DNA of 64,000 nucleotides from an uncultured Veillonellaceae bacterium (GCA_900316275.1 ONCF01000068.1:1-64000), one strand, 5' to 3'; counted from the stretch's first letter, positions 4,146-64,000 are shown. Notes: generated by a model not told the origin, from the letters alone. Program-made: numbers and translations.

Positions 4146-4195
4146 ACTGTGTAATCTGCCTCCTGTAGTCTGCATAAAAAACCAACATAAGAAAA

Positions 4196-4215
4196 GGATA
4201 CAAAGCTTTGTATCC
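4196..4215 (-). promoter_or_regulatory. Perfect palindrome / terminator-like hairpin in the typA leader
   Basis: A 20-base perfect palindrome with GGATACAA arms around AGCT. On the minus strand it is followed by CTTTTC and, about 10 bases later, by a T6 run. It sits between the predicted typA promoter and the typA ribosome site, so it could act as an attenuator or an mRNA-stability hairpin. The function is inferred. Confidence 0.5.
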
Positions 4216-4297
4216 CGGCTCACAAAATCTATGGCCGGCGGCTGCATAGCATTGCCGCCCGCGCCTGCGCCCCTCCCGGGACGCGCAATTTAGTTTC

Positions 4298-4326
4298 ATT
4301 ATACACACTGCCTCCCCTGCTGACAA
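4298..4326 (-). promoter_or_regulatory. Predicted sigma-70 promoter of typA
   Basis: Minus strand TTGTCA (4321-4326), a 17-base spacer, and TATAAT (4298-4303). This predicts a leader of about 145 bases before the typA start codon. Confidence 0.7.
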
Positions 4327-4450
4327 GGTTTTTCGGCAAAATTTTGCGTCTGTGGCAGGGATACGGCGCGTTGCCCGCGAATGTTTATTTATTGAGTAGT
4401 ATTTACCATTTCTTTACATTTGACCGGCGCCCAAACAACGGTGCAACGGT

Positions 4451-4456
4451 TATAAT
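4451..4456 (+). promoter_or_regulatory. Possible -10 box of the polyphosphate operon
   Basis: TATAAT about 65 bases before the first gene of the ppx-like/ppk1 operon. No convincing -35 hexamer is seen at 16-18 bases, so this is tentative. The rest of 4327-4520 shows nothing else recognisable. Confidence 0.35.
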
Positions 4457-4520
4457 AATAACGTGCGTGCTAACGCGCACCAGTTTTCCCTTTCTACCAT
4501 AATATAAGTGAGGTGCAGAT

Positions 4521-6056
4521 ATGGCTCTCAAAAAGGCAAATCTCTACGGAGTCATCTATATGTCCACCGCGAAGCTGGAACTGCTCATCGCCGACTTGAA
4601 GACGCACGAAATCATCGAGCGCGCGAGTTCGCCCAGCTTCGTGCAGGTGGCCGACCGTTCCCACATCTACCATGCGGAAATGGAGAAAATCGTCAGCTCG
4701 GTGAATGGCTTCCAGCAGATTCTCGCCGACTACGGCATCAAGGAGTGCGGCTTCTGGGCAAGCCAGCAGCTCATCGACGACATCACGGCGCGCTATCTGA
4801 CGGAGCAGATTGAAAACCGTACGGGGCTCACGGTCACGTGGCTGAGCTCCAGTCAGTTAAACTATTTCCGTGCCGTGTCGCTCATGGCGCACACGAAGGA
4901 GTCCGAAAGCCTCGGCGCGCAGGTCACGTACCTGCTCTACATCGGTTCGGCGAGCGCCACACTGCTGAAATTCCAGCAGGGCACGTTCCTGCGCAGCTGG
5001 AACATCCGCCTCGGCTATCTCGAGATTGACCGGCTGGCCTTTGCGCTGCGCAACGCGGCGAATGACCCGTACGAAATCATTGATGACTACATCGGCAGCA
5101 AGCTCGACTACCTCGGCAACGAGCTGCGCGAAAACCAGCGCGCCGATGGCCACGCCACGCTCGTGCTGCAGGGCTTTCAGGGGCTGAACAACTATTTTCT
5201 CAAGGATGACGAGCGCACGGCACAGGTCTCCCTGGCGGACTATAACAAGCTCTGCGAGCGCCTGCCCTCGGCCCCGACGGCGACGATTCAGAAACGCCTG
5301 CGCGTCGAATCCTCCACGGCCCGCCACGTCATGCCGGGCACGCTCATCACGCGCCGCATCATGGACTTCATCCATGCCAACCAGCTCTGGTGCACGCGCC
5401 TGAACGTCTGGGACGGCCTCGCGCTGCAGGTGGCGCGCGACCGCGGCCTGCTAAAACACGATATCGAGTCCATCACGCTGACCTCGGCCGTGAACATCGC
5501 CCAGCACTACCTCAGTGACGATGGCCACCGCGTGATGACGCTGCGCCTCGCGCTGCATCTCTTTGACCAGCTGCGCAAGCTGCACCATCTCTCGGCGCGT
5601 GACCGCCTGCTGCTGGCCGTGGCCGTCAACGTCTCCGACATCGGCAACTACATCAGCCAGTATGAGCACTACCATCATTCCTATTATATTTTGAAAGCGA
5701 ACCCGATTATCGGCCTTTCCGATAAAGAGAACAGCATCATCGCTGAACTCGCACGCTACCACAGCGCCGAGGCCCCCGACGTCGAGCAGTACCACTACAG
5801 CTCGCTGGAGCCGGATATACAGATGCGCGTTGCCAAGCTCGTGGCCATCCTGCGCCTCGCCGACGCGCTCGATGACTCGCACCAGCAGAAAATCAACCGC
5901 CTCGCCGTGTCGCTGCGCGAGCATGAGATCGTACTCACGGCCTATTCCTCGCAGGATTTGGCGCTGGAGGAATGGGCATTCGCCAAAAAATCCCAGTTAT
6001 TCTACGAAGTCTACGGCCTGAAAGCCGTGCTGAAACAACGGAGGTCCGAAGCATGA
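4521..6056 (+). CDS. Degenerate Ppx/GppA-HD protein (probable regulator of polyphosphate metabolism)
   Basis: 511-residue protein with the layout of the Ppx/GppA phosphatases that carry a C-terminal HD domain: an ASKHA-like N-terminal half (about 1-300) and an HD-like helical half (about 310-490). The key motifs look lost. The first phosphate loop, normally D-x-GSNS, reads YMSTAKLELL. The DxGGGS motif reads YIGSASATLL. The HD site, normally an HD/HE-I-G motif, reads NVSDIGNYI. By homology it belongs with polyphosphate/(p)ppGpp enzymes, but catalysis is doubtful. Its stop overlaps the ppk1 start (ATGA), so the two are translationally coupled. The start follows GTGAGG, and an in-frame ATG at 4560 is also possible. 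Confidence 0.7.
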   Translation: MALKKANLYGVIYMSTAKLELLIADLKTHEIIERASSPSFVQVADRSHIYHAEMEKIVSSVNGFQQILADYGIKECGFWASQQLIDDITARYLTEQIENRTGLTVTWLSSSQLNYFRAVSLMAHTKESESLGAQVTYLLYIGSASATLLKFQQGTFLRSWNIRLGYLEIDRLAFALRNAANDPYEIIDDYIGSKLDYLGNELRENQRADGHATLVLQGFQGLNNYFLKDDERTAQVSLADYNKLCERLPSAPTATIQKRLRVESSTARHVMPGTLITRRIMDFIHANQLWCTRLNVWDGLALQVARDRGLLKHDIESITLTSAVNIAQHYLSDDGHRVMTLRLALHLFDQLRKLHHLSARDRLLLAVAVNVSDIGNYISQYEHYHHSYYILKANPIIGLSDKENSIIAELARYHSAEAPDVEQYHYSSLEPDIQMRVAKLVAILRLADALDDSHQQKINRLAVSLREHEIVLTAYSSQDLALEEWAFAKKSQLFYEVYGLKAVLKQRRSEA

Positions 6057-55762: not shown

Positions 55763-56890
55763 CTACTTTTGGATTATACTTATTAGCGCATTTGCAATGG
55801 CCTCCGCGTCTTCCTCAGTATTATCTGCGCCAAAAGAAATGCGAATCGTACCCTTAGCATATTCACTTGGCACACGAATAGCCTCAATAACATGGGAGAC
55901 ACGAGTGTTTACCGAATCGCATGCGGACCCCGTTGAAATGCAAATGCCTTTCAGATCCAGTCGGTGCAGCAGCATTTCGCCAGCAACACCTCTAAAGGAA
56001 AGATTTATATTGCCTGGAAGACAATTACTGCTACCGTTTCTTCTGTAATCAATGCCGGAAGACGATAGCCTTTTCAGAACAACCTGCTCCAATCGATGAA
56101 GCCTTCGTGTTATTGCTTCCATACGCTTGCAATTTTTCCGCAATGCAATGGCCATCGCCACAATGGCCGCCACATTTTCTGTGCCGGCACGTTTGCCATA
56201 CTCCTGCGCTCCTCCGTCTACCAAGGAGCAAAGCTCTACGCCCTTCCGAACATAAAGAAAGCCACTCCCCTTCATACCATTAAATTTATGGGCAGAAGCA
56301 GACAACATATCTACCCCCAACGTTTTTACGTCAACAGGAATATGGCCAACCGCCTGCACCGCATCTGTATGAAAAAGTGCACCATGCGCATGTGCAATCT
56401 TAGCCAACTCTTCCACTGGTTCTATGGTCCCAATTTCATTGTTGGCCAACATGACAGAGACAAGTCTCGTATTGTTATCAATATGCTGTGCCAGATATTC
56501 CGGTTGTACGACACCCTCATCAGAAACTGGCAGATATGCTACTGGATACCCAAGGCGCCCTATAGCAGCACAGGCATTAAGCACCGCATGGTGCTCAATC
56601 TGGGATGTAATCGTAGTACGCTTGAATCCATCAGAAAAGGCTGCCTCTTTAATCACCCAGTTATCGCTCTCCGAGCCACCCGACGTGAAGTAGATTTCAT
56701 CAGGCTCCGCACCAATACATGTGGCAATAATTTCACGCGCCTCAACAATACATTTCTTCACTAACCGCGAAAAAGCATAGGGTTGTGACGCGTTGCCATA
56801 CTGCTCTATCAAAAATGGCTCCATCGCCGCAAATGCATCTACATCCAGTTTTGTTGTCGCTGCATTGTCAGCATAAATCCATCGTTTCAT
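55763..56890 (-). CDS. Cysteine desulfurase (NifS/IscS/DndA-like) in BREX operon
   Basis: 375-residue PLP enzyme that takes sulfur from cysteine as a persulfide. Motifs: IYADNAATTKLD, FTSGGSESDNWVIK, EHHAV (His101 stacks on PLP), ANNEIGTIEPVEEL, HTDAVQAVGHIP, PLP Lys202 in SASAHKFNGMKG, RAGTENV, and the persulfide Cys324 in STGSACDS. It starts 9 bases after brxL with AAGGATA upstream and shares its lower GC, so it is the last gene of the defence operon rather than a housekeeping iscS. By analogy with DndA it could supply sulfur for a DNA modification (inference). Confidence 0.88.
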   Translation of the reverse strand: MKRWIYADNAATTKLDVDAFAAMEPFLIEQYGNASQPYAFSRLVKKCIVEAREIIATCIGAEPDEIYFTSGGSESDNWVIKEAAFSDGFKRTTITSQIEHHAVLNACAAIGRLGYPVAYLPVSDEGVVQPEYLAQHIDNNTRLVSVMLANNEIGTIEPVEELAKIAHAHGALFHTDAVQAVGHIPVDVKTLGVDMLSASAHKFNGMKGSGFLYVRKGVELCSLVDGGAQEYGKRAGTENVAAIVAMAIALRKNCKRMEAITRRLHRLEQVVLKRLSSSGIDYRRNGSSNCLPGNINLSFRGVAGEMLLHRLDLKGICISTGSACDSVNTRVSHVIEAIRVPSEYAKGTIRISFGADNTEEDAEAIANALISIIQK

Positions 56891-56899
56891 AATGTATCC

Positions 56900-58345
56900 T
56901 TACTTGGCAAGGCCACGTGTAGAAATATCCGGAATGGTCTTACCCGCTTCTTTAGTGTCAACCAGTCCCATCTGCTCACGTATGATGCTACGCATCGCTC
57001 TTGCTGGCTGTAAACAGTATTGGTCGAAGTCTTCAGTACTAATATCCTCCGCACTTTCCACATGCGGAAAAATCAGCTTCATAAATGCCGTACAAACTTT
57101 CCTGATGGCCTCTGTGTCCCTGGTGTCAGCCTTCGGTGGAATCGCCAGCAGTTCCTCAACAATATTCCGATAAGACGGTGTATTTCTCAACTCATGCAGA
57201 ATTGATGAGAAATATTCAGAATTAAGTGCCCAGCCATTTGCCTTCATATCATCATTCATTCGCGGCAGTTCCCAGCCCTTGATGAATCCATGCAAGCGGT
57301 CCAGAAAAGGCGCCCTGTGGAAGGGTGCTGGAAGTTCCTCAAACATGTACGCGTGCTCATTCATGTTGCTACCGGTAATATTGCCTAAAAACACGATGGC
57401 CGCATCTACATTGACCAGATGTCCATCATCTGCTTTAAAGCTCCCATTTTCCATAATCTGCTGTAGCGACGAATGCATTTCCGCATCCTTCATATAATCC
57501 GCTTCGCGGATTTCATCCAGTGCCACATAGTCCTTATAGGCTACAACGCCTTCCCTTTTACTTGTCTTGTTATAAATCAGCTGAGCTCTCGTGGACTTAC
57601 CGGAAACCAGCCAGCCAAAACGGCTTATCTGTCCGAATAGATACGATTTACCTGTTCCCGGAGGGGCAAGCTCAATTATGTTTAGGTTCTTCTCCACGAA
57701 CGGAAGCAGGCGCTGCAAAAAGGTGAGCCTTTGCTCGCTACTGGCAAATCCGCGGTAATTATAATCTGCAGCAGAAATCAGCACATTAAGCCACTCATCT
57801 GTTGTAAAACTGCGTCGGCCTTCTTTATATTCCTCAAGGTCAACAATATAAGGACAAAATGGTTTATAGTCTGTCATCTCAATGAAGCCTGTTGCATTTT
57901 TCTTGGAGAAATCCTGCATCCAGGTAAGCTCAATGATGCCCCAGTTTTCGCTTTCCTTGAGCAACGTATCCTGCCATTTCTCTATTACGCGTTTTTCAAT
58001 AACACCGCCGGCACCTGACTTCGCATCACCAAAATCTGGCATATCGAATTTCGTGTTACCACTCTTAATATCTACTGAAACACGTATCCGCGCCAATATG
58101 GTCACATTTTCCCCATTCGTCAGCTGGAATTTTATGTATTCAAAGTCATCTTTGTTTGGCACATACCGCTTAAGATAATTTTGCACTCTCTCAGTATCTA
58201 TCTCTCCAGCATCATCGGAAAACTTCATGACAATCCAGTCGCGCATGAAAGATGGCAGCCTAAGGTCCTTAAAAAAGCCTGCACGCTGCGGGCTTTTCAG
58301 CACTACCATGTCAGCAAATACATCTCTCAGTTTATCTTCTTCCAT
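56900..58345 (-). CDS. brxL: BREX protein BrxL-like AAA+ ATPase, short form
   Basis: 481 residues. N-terminal domain of about 215 residues typical of BrxL (DUF4357/Lon-related N part), then AAA+ with Walker A ELAPPGTGKSYLFGQI (about 225-240), Walker B YVALDEIREAD (about 273-283) and sensor-1 AAIVFLGNITGS. The arginine-rich region FHRAPFLDRLHGFIKGWELP follows. The protein ends about 120 residues later without the Lon-like C-terminal protease domain found in type 1 BrxL. BrxL forms DNA-binding rings needed for BREX phage defence. GGAGAG precedes the ATG, 12 bases after the zinc-ribbon gene. Confidence 0.85.
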   Translation of the reverse strand: MEEDKLRDVFADMVVLKSPQRAGFFKDLRLPSFMRDWIVMKFSDDAGEIDTERVQNYLKRYVPNKDDFEYIKFQLTNGENVTILARIRVSVDIKSGNTKFDMPDFGDAKSGAGGVIEKRVIEKWQDTLLKESENWGIIELTWMQDFSKKNATGFIEMTDYKPFCPYIVDLEEYKEGRRSFTTDEWLNVLISAADYNYRGFASSEQRLTFLQRLLPFVEKNLNIIELAPPGTGKSYLFGQISRFGWLVSGKSTRAQLIYNKTSKREGVVAYKDYVALDEIREADYMKDAEMHSSLQQIMENGSFKADDGHLVNVDAAIVFLGNITGSNMNEHAYMFEELPAPFHRAPFLDRLHGFIKGWELPRMNDDMKANGWALNSEYFSSILHELRNTPSYRNIVEELLAIPPKADTRDTEAIRKVCTAFMKLIFPHVESAEDISTEDFDQYCLQPARAMRSIIREQMGLVDTKEAGKTIPDISTRGLAK

Positions 58346-58357
58346 AAAGGCTCTCCC

Positions 58358-58555
58358 TTATAAAAATAGCGTACAACCCTGCTCCTTGAATTCGCTAATC
58401 TTAATTTTCAGGTCGTCCACCTCACAGCCAAAATATTCAGCCATGCATTGAATACAGTAAAATTCTTCTGTGTCAACATCAATCAGTTTCTGCGCCAAGG
58501 CTACTTCATCCTTGGTAAGTTTTTTCCCGCACTCACAGCATAGTTTTTTCCTCAC
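58358..58555 (-). CDS. Small zinc-ribbon protein in BREX operon, GTG start
   Basis: 65 residues. The GTG at 58555 overlaps the pglZ stop in a GTGA quartet, with GGAGGGAG just upstream inside pglZ. Two CxxC pairs, Cys6/Cys9 (CCECG) and Cys34/Cys37 (FYCIQC), make a likely zinc ribbon; Cys7 and Cys44 are additional. The C-terminal half is helical and acidic (DDLKIKISEFKEQG). No family recognised. Its position between pglZ and brxL and its coupled translation make it part of the system, perhaps an adaptor for DNA or protein binding (inference). Confidence 0.75.
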   Translation of the reverse strand: MRKKLCCECGKKLTKDEVALAQKLIDVDTEEFYCIQCMAEYFGCEVDDLKIKISEFKEQGCTLFL

Positions 58556-60915
58556 GGCAAATCTCCCTCCCCGCCGCCTAGTGCTGGCTTGATGGTCACG
58601 TCTGATACTGAAACAATCATATTGTTTGCGAACATCTGTGGCGAATATGTACCGGGGGTTATCCCCGAGAACTCCGCAACCCATCGCGTATTGTCTTCAG
58701 TATGATTTACCACTCCATCTATGCCTGCCAACCTGACCTGCAAACTACTAACCGGTTTGCTGAAGCGTACACAGAGCTGAACTTTTTTTCTTGAGATTTT
58801 CACCGTAGGCTTTTCCCAATTTGCGGTTAAAGGTATTTTTTTATTGCTGTCCAATACAAGAATGGGCACCAGCATTTCCTCAGGTGAAGCGCCACCGTGA
58901 ACCTCTCCATATATAGCATTTTCATCGTCCGCCCCCGCGGCAAAACCAGACTGCGTGAAATGATCATAATTAGTAAAAACAGCATATTGCTTACCGTCAT
59001 TCGCCTTGGCAATACTCATCGTGGCCAAAGGTAGCTGTCCAGTCTGTTTCCATTCGCAATATCTTCCGTGACTATATACCTTCACGTCTCGGTCAACATC
59101 AAAACCGTCACGCTTATGGAAAAATCTCGCAGCTAAGCGGCTAGTACCATGGTCACCTGTAACAATAACCCTGTGATACCTCTCCATCATTTTAGAGACT
59201 TCCTCATAAACAGATGAAACGAACTCTAGCTGTTCTTCGATGCAAGTATAATAATCCGGTTCATCTACTACGCCCCTATGCGCCAGTTTATCAAGCTTGT
59301 CAACTTTTTCATATGGGACCCCCATAACACTCCACTGATCATTGTATTTAGTCTCCGTGGGCAGGTTAGCCTGCCCTATAGTTATGCATTTTACCGTAAC
59401 ATCACAATTTCTAGTGATCCCCCATCGCAATAACGGGAGCCATTCAACGCCTAGCGCATCCACCCACAAGATTGCGGTATCCGCGTCAATATAATCGGAT
59501 AAAATGGCATACCGCATTTCATAAGTATCCGTATCAATTCCACTGAAATATGCTGACTCATCTTCCGGTAAAATATTGGCCAGCTTATATGATTTATATC
59601 GCTCCATGTAGAGCTTGATATCATCATCCAGGCCCACATCTTTATCACGAAGATAATAATAGAGTTCTGGATAGACAGCTGCCAATTTTTCACAAGACAA
59701 CACCTGCGTGTAATCAGACCGCATCCACTTGCCCACCATTCTTAACAAGTAGACACGCTCCCCACGTTCCTTTCCTTGCATGAACTCAAGTCTGTTTTCA
59801 TAATCAGGGATAGTATCCAGTTCCTTAAAAAATCTTGGTCCCGGCTTTAGTCCCATGACCTTAGCTAGCGTTTTGTACTCGCTGACCCATTCTGGCTTGT
59901 CATACCCGACCTTAAAAATCTCCAACATTATTGTTTTAGGAATATCCGCTAAGCTAGCTACACAGGCAAAGCAATGGCATAAATACGTGGAATTCGGATG
60001 TAACTCAAGCCATAAGTAGACGGCTTGTTTGTGGCTATCGGGTATATTTTCCCACTTCGCCATGACATCAGCACCATTAAATGACGAAACGTTCAGAATG
60101 CCTAACAATGCCGCATCCAAATTCTCGCGCCCATGTTTAAGGTTATAGTCAAACAGAACACTTTGCAAATTGCTGGGACAGTTCTCTGATGTTAAAACAT
60201 CTGCTCCGTGTAGATGTTCCTTAATAAAGGCCAACATATTATCAATCACATTGATAGAAATATTACCGTCCGTCGTATCCACACAATTTGCACGTTTGGT
60301 GATTAGTACAAAGTCCGTTTTATTCGGTGCCGGATTGAGCCAATATTCGAACCACGCTTGCAGACCTTTTTTCAAATCGTCATACACAGCTTCCAGACTC
60401 GATATGTACTTATCGAACTTTCCAGAAAAAACAAGTAGGCTTAATTTCTGTTCTTCTGACTCGGGAGCGGAGCAATCAAAGAAGAAATCCTCCTGTCTCA
60501 AATCGCCTGTGAGGTTCATGGCTTTATCAAACCATTTGGCTTCACAGCCCCATAACGGGATAATAATCCTGCCCGTACTGCTTGCAGGGGCCTGATAAGC
60601 CCAAAGGGTAGCAAAACGGCGGTCTGAAATCTCATTTTGGGCAAACAAGCGCAGATATTCACTAACACCAGTGAGTATGAGCCATTTATCTTGAAATTTT
60701 GCAGCCTTCAAATTTTCATACCTAGGCATGATATCAGTATTGGCAAACAAGTCCGACATAGGAACGAAACTAATATCACTTATTTTTTTTAGTTCTGAAA
60801 TAAGCTCACAATACTCGGGTATATTTTTTACCATGATGGCGCGGCAGGGGAAACGGGAAGCGACAGCATTCTGCTGTTCCTTCTGCAGCTTTGACACAAC
60901 TTCCTGTATTGTCAT
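58552..60915 (-). CDS. pglZ: BREX alkaline-phosphatase-superfamily protein PglZ
   Basis: 787 residues. The N-terminal ~470 residues are specific to BREX PglZ. The PglZ alkaline-phosphatase-like core has metal-binding motifs ILWVDALGVEWLPLL (first Asp), VIVTGDHGTSRLAARFFH (Asp-His pair) and VHGGASPEEMLVPIL (final His). A C-terminal beta-sandwich-like tail follows (KKVQLCVRFSKPVSSLQVRL). I choose ATG 60915 with AAGGGGA 8 bases upstream; ATG 60933, which overlaps the brxC stop (TAATG), is the alternative. PglZ is present in all BREX types. No pglX methyltransferase accompanies it here. Confidence 0.9.
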   Translation of the reverse strand: MTIQEVVSKLQKEQQNAVASRFPCRAIMVKNIPEYCELISELKKISDISFVPMSDLFANTDIMPRYENLKAAKFQDKWLILTGVSEYLRLFAQNEISDRRFATLWAYQAPASSTGRIIIPLWGCEAKWFDKAMNLTGDLRQEDFFFDCSAPESEEQKLSLLVFSGKFDKYISSLEAVYDDLKKGLQAWFEYWLNPAPNKTDFVLITKRANCVDTTDGNISINVIDNMLAFIKEHLHGADVLTSENCPSNLQSVLFDYNLKHGRENLDAALLGILNVSSFNGADVMAKWENIPDSHKQAVYLWLELHPNSTYLCHCFACVASLADIPKTIMLEIFKVGYDKPEWVSEYKTLAKVMGLKPGPRFFKELDTIPDYENRLEFMQGKERGERVYLLRMVGKWMRSDYTQVLSCEKLAAVYPELYYYLRDKDVGLDDDIKLYMERYKSYKLANILPEDESAYFSGIDTDTYEMRYAILSDYIDADTAILWVDALGVEWLPLLRWGITRNCDVTVKCITIGQANLPTETKYNDQWSVMGVPYEKVDKLDKLAHRGVVDEPDYYTCIEEQLEFVSSVYEEVSKMMERYHRVIVTGDHGTSRLAARFFHKRDGFDVDRDVKVYSHGRYCEWKQTGQLPLATMSIAKANDGKQYAVFTNYDHFTQSGFAAGADDENAIYGEVHGGASPEEMLVPILVLDSNKKIPLTANWEKPTVKISRKKVQLCVRFSKPVSSLQVRLAGIDGVVNHTEDNTRWVAEFSGITPGTYSPQMFANNMIVSVSDVTIKPALGGGEGDLP

Positions 60916-60932
60916 TTTGTCTTCCCCTTCCA

Positions 60933-63900
60933 TTATTCGACAAAGTCATCACAATACTCTGGGTGTGCATCAAGGAAGGCTGCCACGCGTTCCTTCAGCA
61001 TATCCGCTTGCATATCGCGTATATTGTTTTTCGTCTCGGCCAGTTTCTCCCGCTTGGCTTTTTCCTGCATTGCCTGCTTAAGTAAGCTCTGCAACGTTCT
61101 TAGGCCAGAAACGTTCCATTTGCTCATATCACTGCCAAGCTTCATTTTAGCGGTGGCAATAATAGCATCATGCTTATCATGCCAAATATCCAAATATTCA
61201 CTGCCTACCGTAGCCAGGAACGCCGTCTCAATTTTGTCTCTGTCGTTTAATATAGAACTATCTATATTACGCAGCGCTTGTATTGCGTTAACCACCAAAC
61301 TATCCGCTACGAGATTTTCGTTTTGCACCTCAAGCAACGTAGATAAAGGCTTTTGCAATTCAGGCGGAATAATCCACAGCAATGGCACTTCAAAGGTATT
61401 ACACCATTCTCTTACGGAATCAATGCCTGTCTGCGATTTCCATATTTCTTTAAGCGTTACCTTATTGCGGGCATATTTAATTTTGCCCACTTGCATCTTT
61501 AGTTCTTTATCGAATTGCGTAAGCGTTGCATCGCAACGCATATCCTTCAAGCCGCTATATATGGTGCCAAGCTCATCCGAAGTGCATTCAATCTGTCTCT
61601 TGGCTAGAATATCGCTGAGTACGGACTTGCCATCCTCCAGGCAGTCCTTGGCATATGTCCCATACTCTTCAAGCACGGATATGTCAGACTCTCTTTCCTC
61701 TGACGTTAAATACGCCGCGCGCCCTTGCGACACCTTGTACAAGACTTTCAGCGTCGGATACCAGGCAAGTTGCAACTGCTCAATGGCAGCCATGGGAATA
61801 CGCAAATATTTGAACAGATTGGCAAGGTCCCTTTGCGCCGCTTCCAGACTATGATAAGCCTTTTTCTGTACATGTCCAATTGCTTCCAGATATTTGTAAT
61901 CGCCTACAATATCAAACAGCTTATCTTTGACTTGTTCCTCTGTCCAGGTATAGATTGCTCCCTGCATTACCGAATGTAGTTTATCGCTCAGTTCCTCCGG
62001 CTGAACGCTCAGTCGGGTAGCGATATCCTGCAAATCTGGCGAAACACTGAAAAGGAATGTCCTGAAGGCTGCCGCCATGGTGTTTTTATCCTGAAAAGCT
62101 TGAGCAAGGACAAGGCGGATTTTTCCTTTGCCTTTCATCAGTTGCAACACATTGCTCATAGCCGTCTCAATATCACCCTCTTGGGTAATAAAGACCTGAA
62201 TGTTATCAATAACATTTTCTGCAACACTGCGCAAATCTTCGCTTGTCCATGACTCGGCAGGCAGGTATTTCAAAACCCAGAAAGGAGCACCACTTTTAGT
62301 AACTGCTTCACGCGTATTATGATATCCAGTTGTCTGCTCAGCGAGCTGCGCTACGGTAAGGTTGAAAATCTTCTCCAGGTAGGGGCTGAAGTTCTGCCAG
62401 GTGATAGAGCCAGCGGATAGATAGTCCGTCGTCATTCTGCCTTTACATATGTCAACGACCATCTTGCCTATGGTCGTTTCGGTAAGAATTTGTGGCGACT
62501 GTGCGCTATCCGTCCAAGTAAATTTGTTATTTTTATAACAAGAGAAAACATACCCGAGCAAAACGCCACAGGCGATTGTATCATAATATCCATAGGGAGC
62601 CTTCTGTAGAGTAGTCCACAAATCGCCAAGATTTACTCTGTAGCCTGATTCCATTTCCCCTTTTATCAGTTTAGCCAGCTCAGCTACACTGTTGACCGCT
62701 TTACTTCCCTGTGCACCAGTCATAGCATCTATTGTCGCCAGATCTAGCATCCCTACGGTCTGCAGCGCATTTAATACGTTTTTGACCTGAGCATTTTTGC
62801 TATTACGCTGGACACCAGCAAGGGGCGCGCCTTCGTTGCAGGGTTTGTACGCAGTATTGGTAACAATAATGTTTTCCGGAGCATATGGGAAAATAACGTC
62901 CAACACACCTGTGCGGATAGTTTTGCGCAATTGAGCCATGCCATATTGATTGTTCCATACCTGACTACCGTTATAGGCAATCATCTTACTGCCACTAACC
63001 GCACTGCCAACCCAGGTTACCAAAATTTTGTTGGCTTCCATGGTGTATTCATTGGCCGAGCCGGTATGCCCCGACACGCTTGCCATCTCCTGCTTGGTGA
63101 TAGCAGTCAGCCAAGCTTTTCTCTTTTTATCAGTAAAGGCTTCTTTAATCAGTGCAATTGTAAGCCGTGGTTCTTGTGCTGCAACTGCCTTTTGTTGTAA
63201 CGTCGACTGAATGGCGACCGCCTGCGCGTCACTATTAACGGCAACCAAAAGCAGGCCCAACTTGTACGGATACCGTTCCAGCTCCTTCCTTACCTCTGCC
63301 AGGCGCGCATTGATAGAGTTCGTCTCCGCACAGCAAACAGCAACCCTCATCCGCCTGCTTACAGCGTCATTTTCATCCATGGCGCGTTTCTCAAATTCCT
63401 TGGCAAAGGCCCCGTCTTTGGAGAACATCATATAGCGGCTATACTTTTTGTCGTTGCTCGCTAAATGCGCCTCAAATTCGGTGCCGGACGCAGTATTAAA
63501 GGGAAGTTGTAAGCGTACGTTACCACGCGCATCTTTTTCCAAGACGAGGATTTTACTGTCCTGCATGGATACGAGCAGGTCATGCACATGTTCCTTCTTC
63601 ATGACGCCGGCCAGGCAGTTATCAAGACATTCCTCCGTTGCCGAAATGCCGTCACTGGTCTTCTTCCCGATGAAAAATCCCTTAGTAGATGACATCAAAG
63701 CCATCAAGAGCAGTGCCGTCTTAAAGACACGATAGGCATTCTCATCGCCCTCCACCAGATTCTTGCTCTCCTCGAAATGGCGAATATACTCCGGTACCTT
63801 CGTTTCCTTGTCCGAAAAATCACTCTCGCGGGTGAAAAAATAATCCCATAACCAGTCCGGCGTAAGCCAATCTGCCTGGTCATCCGGCCCATACTTGTTG

Positions 63901-64000
63901 ATGTAACCGACAAAGCCAAGGTCTGCCGTCGCCTGGTCCTTCATGAAACGGAACATAGTACGTTGAGACGCCGCATAGTTCTCCGCAACGCGGGAAAGCA
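60933..64000 (-). CDS. brxC: BREX ATPase BrxC/PglY-type, 5' end outside window
   Basis: About 1022 residues visible, open to the window edge. The first visible residues (LSRVAENYAASQRTMFRFMK) match the end of the BrxC ATPase domain, where an NERSLFSFL-like motif is usual; the Walker A part lies upstream of the window. The remainder is a long helical protein with a region from about 200 to 400 (CCAETNSINARLAEVRKELE, LLLVAVNSDAQAV) and a Lys/Glu-rich C-terminal coil. BrxC homologues are about 1200 residues. It is the first visible gene of the operon and its stop overlaps or abuts pglZ. Confidence 0.75.
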   Translation of the reverse strand, partial: LSRVAENYAASQRTMFRFMKDQATADLGFVGYINKYGPDDQADWLTPDWLWDYFFTRESDFSDKETKVPEYIRHFEESKNLVEGDENAYRVFKTALLLMALMSSTKGFFIGKKTSDGISATEECLDNCLAGVMKKEHVHDLLVSMQDSKILVLEKDARGNVRLQLPFNTASGTEFEAHLASNDKKYSRYMMFSKDGAFAKEFEKRAMDENDAVSRRMRVAVCCAETNSINARLAEVRKELERYPYKLGLLLVAVNSDAQAVAIQSTLQQKAVAAQEPRLTIALIKEAFTDKKRKAWLTAITKQEMASVSGHTGSANEYTMEANKILVTWVGSAVSGSKMIAYNGSQVWNNQYGMAQLRKTIRTGVLDVIFPYAPENIIVTNTAYKPCNEGAPLAGVQRNSKNAQVKNVLNALQTVGMLDLATIDAMTGAQGSKAVNSVAELAKLIKGEMESGYRVNLGDLWTTLQKAPYGYYDTIACGVLLGYVFSCYKNNKFTWTDSAQSPQILTETTIGKMVVDICKGRMTTDYLSAGSITWQNFSPYLEKIFNLTVAQLAEQTTGYHNTREAVTKSGAPFWVLKYLPAESWTSEDLRSVAENVIDNIQVFITQEGDIETAMSNVLQLMKGKGKIRLVLAQAFQDKNTMAAAFRTFLFSVSPDLQDIATRLSVQPEELSDKLHSVMQGAIYTWTEEQVKDKLFDIVGDYKYLEAIGHVQKKAYHSLEAAQRDLANLFKYLRIPMAAIEQLQLAWYPTLKVLYKVSQGRAAYLTSEERESDISVLEEYGTYAKDCLEDGKSVLSDILAKRQIECTSDELGTIYSGLKDMRCDATLTQFDKELKMQVGKIKYARNKVTLKEIWKSQTGIDSVREWCNTFEVPLLWIIPPELQKPLSTLLEVQNENLVADSLVVNAIQALRNIDSSILNDRDKIETAFLATVGSEYLDIWHDKHDAIIATAKMKLGSDMSKWNVSGLRTLQSLLKQAMQEKAKREKLAETKNNIRDMQADMLKERVAAFLDAHPEYCDDFVE

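What the first reader, a model, noticed from the sequence alone, without database searches (positions are those of the whole stretch)
55763..64000. Type 4-like BREX operon carrying its own cysteine desulfurase: possible sulfur-based DNA marking
Seen: brxC, pglZ, zinc-ribbon, short brxL and a cysteine desulfurase on one strand with overlaps or gaps of at most 12 bases, and no pglX methyltransferase in view. Known: type 4 BREX is brxP-brxC-pglZ-brxL, and BrxP contains a PAPS-reductase (DndC-like) domain; in Dnd systems DndA (cysteine desulfurase) plus DndC put sulfur into the DNA backbone. Inference: here the desulfurase feeds BrxP to make a phosphorothioate-type self mark, so the operon would be a BREX/Dnd hybrid. 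The methyltransferase of other BREX types would be replaced by sulfur chemistry.
Basis: partly seen in the sequence, partly recalled or inferred. Interest (0 to 1): 0.88.

Follow-up and report, generated by a model that had tools for sequence, protein, structure and literature searches.

The report
Type 4 BREX with own desulfurase
A bacterium related to Veillonella has acquired a complete phage-defence operon of a known kind (type 4 BREX) that most likely marks its own DNA with sulfur and carries its own sulfur-supplying enzyme; the idea is sound but already published, and the operon also has a fast-evolving DNA-binding gene that the surveys I could read do not describe.

Summary
No pglX is present. 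The seven-gene insert (45.6% GC; window 60%) lies between lon and engB, which are adjacent in 11 of 12 relatives. It is a type 4 BREX system. Its desulfurase falls in one clade of 56 BREX-linked desulfurases from several phyla, apart from housekeeping IscS (including this genome's own) and two DndA proteins. I found it in 62 of 81 type 4 loci with room to see it.

Phosphorothioation by type 4 BREX was reported in 2024, and a 2026 survey names the desulfurase (56% of taxa) and small zinc finger. No sulfur in this organism's DNA was measured here.

Beyond the finding: (1) a gene directly upstream of brxP encodes a predicted tandem winged-helix protein, present in 100 of 112 loci, the fastest-evolving component, and not described in the survey text I could read; it may set target specificity. 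(2) The zinc-ribbon protein has a fifth, near-invariant C-terminal cysteine, a weak lead for a sulfur-relay role.

The parts
55763..56890 (-). Cysteine desulfurase (375 aa), NifS/IscS class; PLP lysine in SAHK (motif from 199) and catalytic cysteine in GSAC (motif from 321) both present
56900..58345 (-). brxL, short form without the C-terminal Lon-protease part (481 aa)
   Evidence: (PF13337, PF20442, TIGR02688)
58358..58555 (-). Small zinc-ribbon gene (65 aa, GTG start overlapping the pglZ stop); four zinc-type cysteines plus a fifth conserved cysteine in a C-terminal FKxxGCxLF motif
58552..60933 (-). pglZ of the BREX-4 class (793 aa)
   Evidence: NF033445, 267 bits, cut-off 140
60933..64000 (-). 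brxC, AAA+ ATPase (1405 aa in full, start at contig base 65150 outside the window; Walker A GTYGTGKS). The operon goes on beyond the window, in the same contig numbering: brxP 65166-67562 (798 aa), the upstream tandem winged-helix gene 67599-68723 (374 aa), then an Rpn-family nuclease gene 69110-69967 and lon

Best explanation
This is a complete, horizontally acquired type 4 BREX operon, inserted between lon and engB. Shown by sequence: the gene set, intact motifs, low GC, and the empty site in relatives. Inferred from published work on type 4 BREX and Dnd/Ssp: the desulfurase takes sulfur from cysteine; BrxP, driven by its PP-loop ATP pyrophosphatase chemistry and iron-sulfur centres and helped by the BrxC ATPase, puts sulfur into the DNA backbone at particular sites as a self mark; PglZ and BrxL act against DNA that lacks the mark. 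My own inference: the upstream winged-helix protein, together with the DUF4007-like part of BrxP, reads the DNA target. The desulfurase may also build BrxP's iron-sulfur clusters; the two roles are compatible.
For: Family hits for every core gene. BrxP motifs invariant in 13 aligned family members: SGGKDS, CC-x89-CxxC and eight ferredoxin-like cysteines. BrxP is the only PAPS-reductase-domain protein found in the genome. Desulfurases of 56 BREX loci form one clade, 97/91, spanning Bacillota, Bacteroidota, Fibrobacterota, Spirochaetota, Mycoplasmatota, Pseudomonadota and Hydrogenedentota, apart from 23 non-BREX desulfurases and 2 DndA. The desulfurase is in 62 of 81 loci with room downstream. 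Insert 45.6% GC against 60.3% in the window; lon and engB adjacent in 11 of 12 relatives. Literature: PMC12839542 and PMC11931770.
Against: Nothing here measures sulfur in DNA, expression or phage resistance. The primary paper on phosphorothioation by type 4 BREX was not held, so its result is taken from papers that cite it. 19 of 81 loci lack a linked desulfurase, so it is not indispensable in the operon. The upstream protein here is a short form, with none of the N-terminal part most homologs have, so full function is not certain.
Confidence: 0.85

Rival explanations
1. The desulfurase serves only to assemble the iron-sulfur clusters of BrxP, and the sulfur that enters DNA comes from elsewhere, for example the housekeeping IscS.
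For: BrxP has an invariant CC-x89-CxxC motif and eight further invariant cysteines, so it probably needs clusters; DndA was reported to assemble DndC as an iron-sulfur protein (You et al. 2007, by title, cited in PMC12839542). 10 loci with the zinc ribbon and the rest of the operon lack the desulfurase.
Against: Not exclusive of direct sulfur donation. A housekeeping IscS is present in this genome, so cluster assembly alone would not obviously need a second, dedicated enzyme.
Confidence: 0.25
2. The desulfurase is a housekeeping gene that happens to sit next to the operon.
For: It belongs to the general NifS/IscS class: TIGR03402 NifS 427 bits, below that model's cut-off of 531.
Against: It has a 9-base gap to brxL, shares the insert's low GC (46.9%), lies inside the boundaries set by engB, and falls in the BREX-linked clade. 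The genome has another IscS in its usual place beside an Rrf2-type regulator.
Confidence: 0.02
3. The operon is decaying and inactive in this strain.
For: The upstream winged-helix gene is 374 aa with no N-terminal region, against 647 aa in the nearest relative L067, and starts with TTG.
Against: All seven genes are open. The conserved 373-residue core of the upstream protein is complete, and other loci also have short forms (L079 347 aa, L095 419 aa as open frames).
Confidence: 0.1

Closest known systems
Type 4 BREX (brxP-brxC-pglZ-brxL), as surveyed in PMC12839542
   Same: All four defining genes in order, with the desulfurase and small zinc finger that the 2026 survey adds; no methyltransferase
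   Different: Gene order in this subclade is pglZ-zinc ribbon-brxL-desulfurase, while most loci here have brxL-zinc ribbon-desulfurase; the gene upstream of brxP is not described in the survey text I read
Ssp system (SspABCD)
   Same: Desulfurase, PAPS-reductase-type protein and ORC-like ATPase; BrxC matches PADLOC SspC models (best 80 bits) and BrxP matches SspD weakly (30 bits)
   Different: PglZ and BrxL are present and BrxC/BrxP models score far higher (191 and 753 bits); the desulfurase matches PDB SspA only moderately (190 bits)
Dnd system (DndABCDE)
   Same: Uses a cysteine desulfurase and a PP-loop sulfur-transfer protein
   Different: BrxP is far below the DndC equivalog cut-off (20 bits against 290); nothing in this genome matched DndC at E 1e-60; the two DndA proteins sampled fall outside the BREX desulfurase clade

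Membership tests
Type 4 BREX | BREX-4 class PglZ | tested here: met
   NF033445 267 bits, cut-off 140
Type 4 BREX | BrxP with PAPS-reductase domain in place of a PglX methyltransferase | tested here: met
   PF01507 96 bits, PADLOC BrxP 753 bits; no pglX in the insert
Type 4 BREX | BrxC ATPase and short BrxL in the same operon | tested here: met
   PADLOC BrxC 191 bits, BrxL 609 bits; intergenic gaps 36 bases or less
Type 4 BREX | Linked cysteine desulfurase (56% of taxa in PMC12839542) | tested here: met
   55763-56890; one clade with 55 other BREX-linked desulfurases
Type 4 BREX | Phosphorothioate in DNA and phage exclusion | not testable with these tools
   Needs LC-MS, sequencing of modification sites and phage plating
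Dnd system | DndC above the curated cut-off | tested here: not met
   BrxP scores 20 bits against TIGR03183, cut-off 290; no DndC match in this genome at E 1e-60
Dnd system | Desulfurase is DndA | tested here: not met
   TIGR03235 294 bits, cut-off 480; two DndA from Dnd loci fall outside the BREX clade, on long branches
Ssp system | SspC ATPase and SspD as best matches | tested here: not met
   SspC 80 bits and SspD 30 bits, against BrxC 191 and BrxP 753 bits

The most novel reading that the evidence does not exclude
Type 4 BREX has an overlooked core component: a rapidly evolving tandem winged-helix protein encoded directly upstream of brxP that sets which DNA sites are sulfur-marked, much as a specificity subunit does in restriction-modification, with a small zinc-ribbon protein passing sulfur from desulfurase to BrxP. 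The first half is the stronger: it is present in 100 of 112 loci, is the least conserved component, and is missing in all 8 loci that carry a second DUF4007-like gene. The second half is weak, because zinc-ribbon relatives with the same C-terminal cysteine also occur beside glycosidase genes.
Probability: 0.3. Interest if true: 0.65.

Novelty: new member of a known kind. Interest (0 to 1): 0.4.

Why it matters
The window adds a complete, acquired type 4 BREX operon with an empty-site comparison, and independent support that the linked desulfurase belongs to the system: one clade across several phyla, distinct from housekeeping IscS. If the upstream winged-helix protein proves to be the specificity component, it would explain how these systems choose their sulfur-marking sites and give a direct handle for testing it by swapping the gene between laboratory-hosted operons. 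The desulfurase and the sulfur-marking idea themselves are already published.

Tried and rejected
Housekeeping origin of the desulfurase: rejected by the tree. Direct descent from DndA: not supported, though only two DndA proteins were sampled, both on long branches, and no SspA was found next to the Ssp loci fetched. Zinc ribbon as a known family: only weak, scattered Pfam matches, no PDB match by sequence below E 0.2, no significant fold match. Zinc ribbon as a BREX-only sulfur carrier: weakened, because more distant relatives with a C-terminal cysteine lie beside genes that look like GH27 alpha-galactosidases in L205-L208 (the glycosidase identity is read from a sequence motif, not a search). 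N-terminal parts of the upstream protein as unrelated swapped domains: not supported; 82 of 84 join one cluster by single linkage, so length and module number vary rather than origin. Invertible segment in L033: no convincing inverted repeats at the break points. The primary papers by Yuan et al. and Goldfarb et al. were not held.

Full report
WHAT IS THERE. Reading on along the contig shows brxC reaching base 65150, then brxP at 65166-67562 and a further gene at 67599-68723. The zinc-ribbon gene most likely starts at a GTG at 58555, overlapping the pglZ stop as GTGA after a good ribosome-binding site, giving 65 aa. PglZ passes the BREX-4 model (267 bits, cut-off 140) and BrxL passes TIGR02688. 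BrxP matches PADLOC BrxP over its full length (753 bits) and carries a PAPS-reductase domain and 4Fe-4S motifs. No methyltransferase gene lies in the insert.

WHERE IT CAME FROM. The insert has 45.6% GC, against 60.3% for the first 55 kb of the window. In 11 of 12 relatives examined, lon lies directly beside engB, where the insert sits here. An Rpn-family nuclease gene lies between the operon and lon. The nearest operon found, from an uncultured Veillonellaceae MAG (L067), has 88% identical BrxP.

BrxP. In 13 aligned family members the SGGKDS loop, a CC-x89-CxxC motif and eight ferredoxin-like cysteines are invariant. The paired-cysteine spacing resembles that of iron-sulfur APS reductases (from my own knowledge, not tested). 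BrxP is the only protein in this genome matching the PAPS-reductase family.

THE DESULFURASE. It has the PLP lysine and catalytic cysteine motifs. In a tree of 85 proteins, all 56 BREX-linked desulfurases fall on one side of a branch with 97/91 support, in 98% of bootstrap trees. They come from several phyla. This genome's own IscS (44% identical, beside a gene for an Rrf2-type regulator) and 22 other non-BREX desulfurases lie outside, as do two DndA proteins from Dnd loci. The DndA branches are long, so their exact place is unsure. Two non-BREX rows (L147, L148) are the nearest neighbours; I did not establish what they do. Of 81 type 4 loci with at least 600 bases beyond brxL, 62 carry the desulfurase and 72 the zinc ribbon. 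No locus among these has the desulfurase without the zinc ribbon; 10 have the zinc ribbon alone. This is a count of loci, not of independent events, and the two genes lie close together.

LITERATURE. PMC12839542 (2026) states that type 4 BREX replaces the methyltransferase by a phosphorothioation apparatus, reports a cysteine desulfurase in 255 of 457 taxa (56%) as a possible sixth core component, and notes a co-occurring small zinc finger. PMC11931770 lists brxPCZL among three gene families for phosphorothioate synthesis, citing Yuan et al. 2024. I could not read Yuan et al..

THE UPSTREAM GENE. The 374-aa protein upstream of brxP matches no Pfam, NCBIfam or PADLOC family. Iterated profiles find homologs directly upstream of brxP in 92 of 112 non-redundant loci with room, and somewhere in the fetched locus in 100. 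All 8 loci with a second DUF4007-like gene lack it; these belong to a related group, so this is not 8 independent cases. A structure prediction for the L067 homolog is confident over the C-terminal core (block means 90-98) and its secondary structure reads as five successive winged-helix units (the count of five is my reading). The best PDB fold matches are tandem winged-helix proteins such as the SelB C-terminus and UFL1-DDRGK1. Scattered Pfam hits in longer homologs are HARE-HTH, sigma-70 region 4 and integrase SAM-like domains. The core is about 373 residues and ends at the C-terminus; the N-terminal part varies from 0 to 853 residues. Over 103 pairs of loci (not independent), mean identity is 58% for this protein, against 75% BrxP, 73% BrxC, 68% PglZ, 87% BrxL, 76% desulfurase and 82% zinc ribbon. 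A DNA-reading, specificity-type role fits these facts but is not shown. The main text of PMC12839542 that I searched does not name it among the components; its supplements were not available.

THE ZINC RIBBON. Four zinc-type cysteines and a fifth in FKxxGCxLF are conserved at 99-100% in 81 homologs. In a sample of 398 genomes of the phylum, all 11 strong matches (E below 1e-20) lie beside brx genes, while four weaker matches with a C-terminal cysteine lie beside what look like GH27 glycosidase genes. The fold prediction is fair (mean pLDDT 87) but has no significant PDB match. A sulfur-relay role is a guess.

VERDICT. The added value is the desulfurase clade, the empty site, and the tandem winged-helix gene as a candidate further component.

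Noticed in passing
contig C70:67599-68723 (outside the window); homologs in most of L027-L146: Gene directly upstream of brxP encodes a predicted tandem winged-helix protein, present in 100 of 112 type 4 loci, fastest-evolving component, not described in the survey text I could read.
   Followed up: partly
58358-58555: Zinc-ribbon protein has a fifth near-invariant cysteine in a C-terminal FKxxGCxLF motif; a possible sulfur-relay site, or only structural.
   Followed up: partly
L205-L208: Distant relatives of the zinc-ribbon protein, with a C-terminal cysteine, lie beside genes that look like GH27 alpha-galactosidases, outside BREX.
   Followed up: no
family of the window's genome: Type 4 BREX is common here: about 39 of 189 genomes have a BrxP match at E below 1e-150, and several carry two or three; in a phylum-wide sample 14 of 398 genomes have the BREX-4 PglZ.
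   Followed up: no
L033 (G076:C27), about 4185-5207: A segment of about 1 kb holding the end of pglZ and the start of brxL is inverted relative to other loci; no clear inverted repeats at its ends, so either a rearrangement or an assembly error.
   Followed up: partly
L103 and L054: Two upstream winged-helix genes in tandem in one locus.
   Followed up: no
L089-L092, L097, L099, L102: A group of type 4 loci with a second DUF4007-like gene after brxP lacks the upstream winged-helix gene, the zinc ribbon and the desulfurase (L086 has the second gene and the zinc ribbon).
   Followed up: partly
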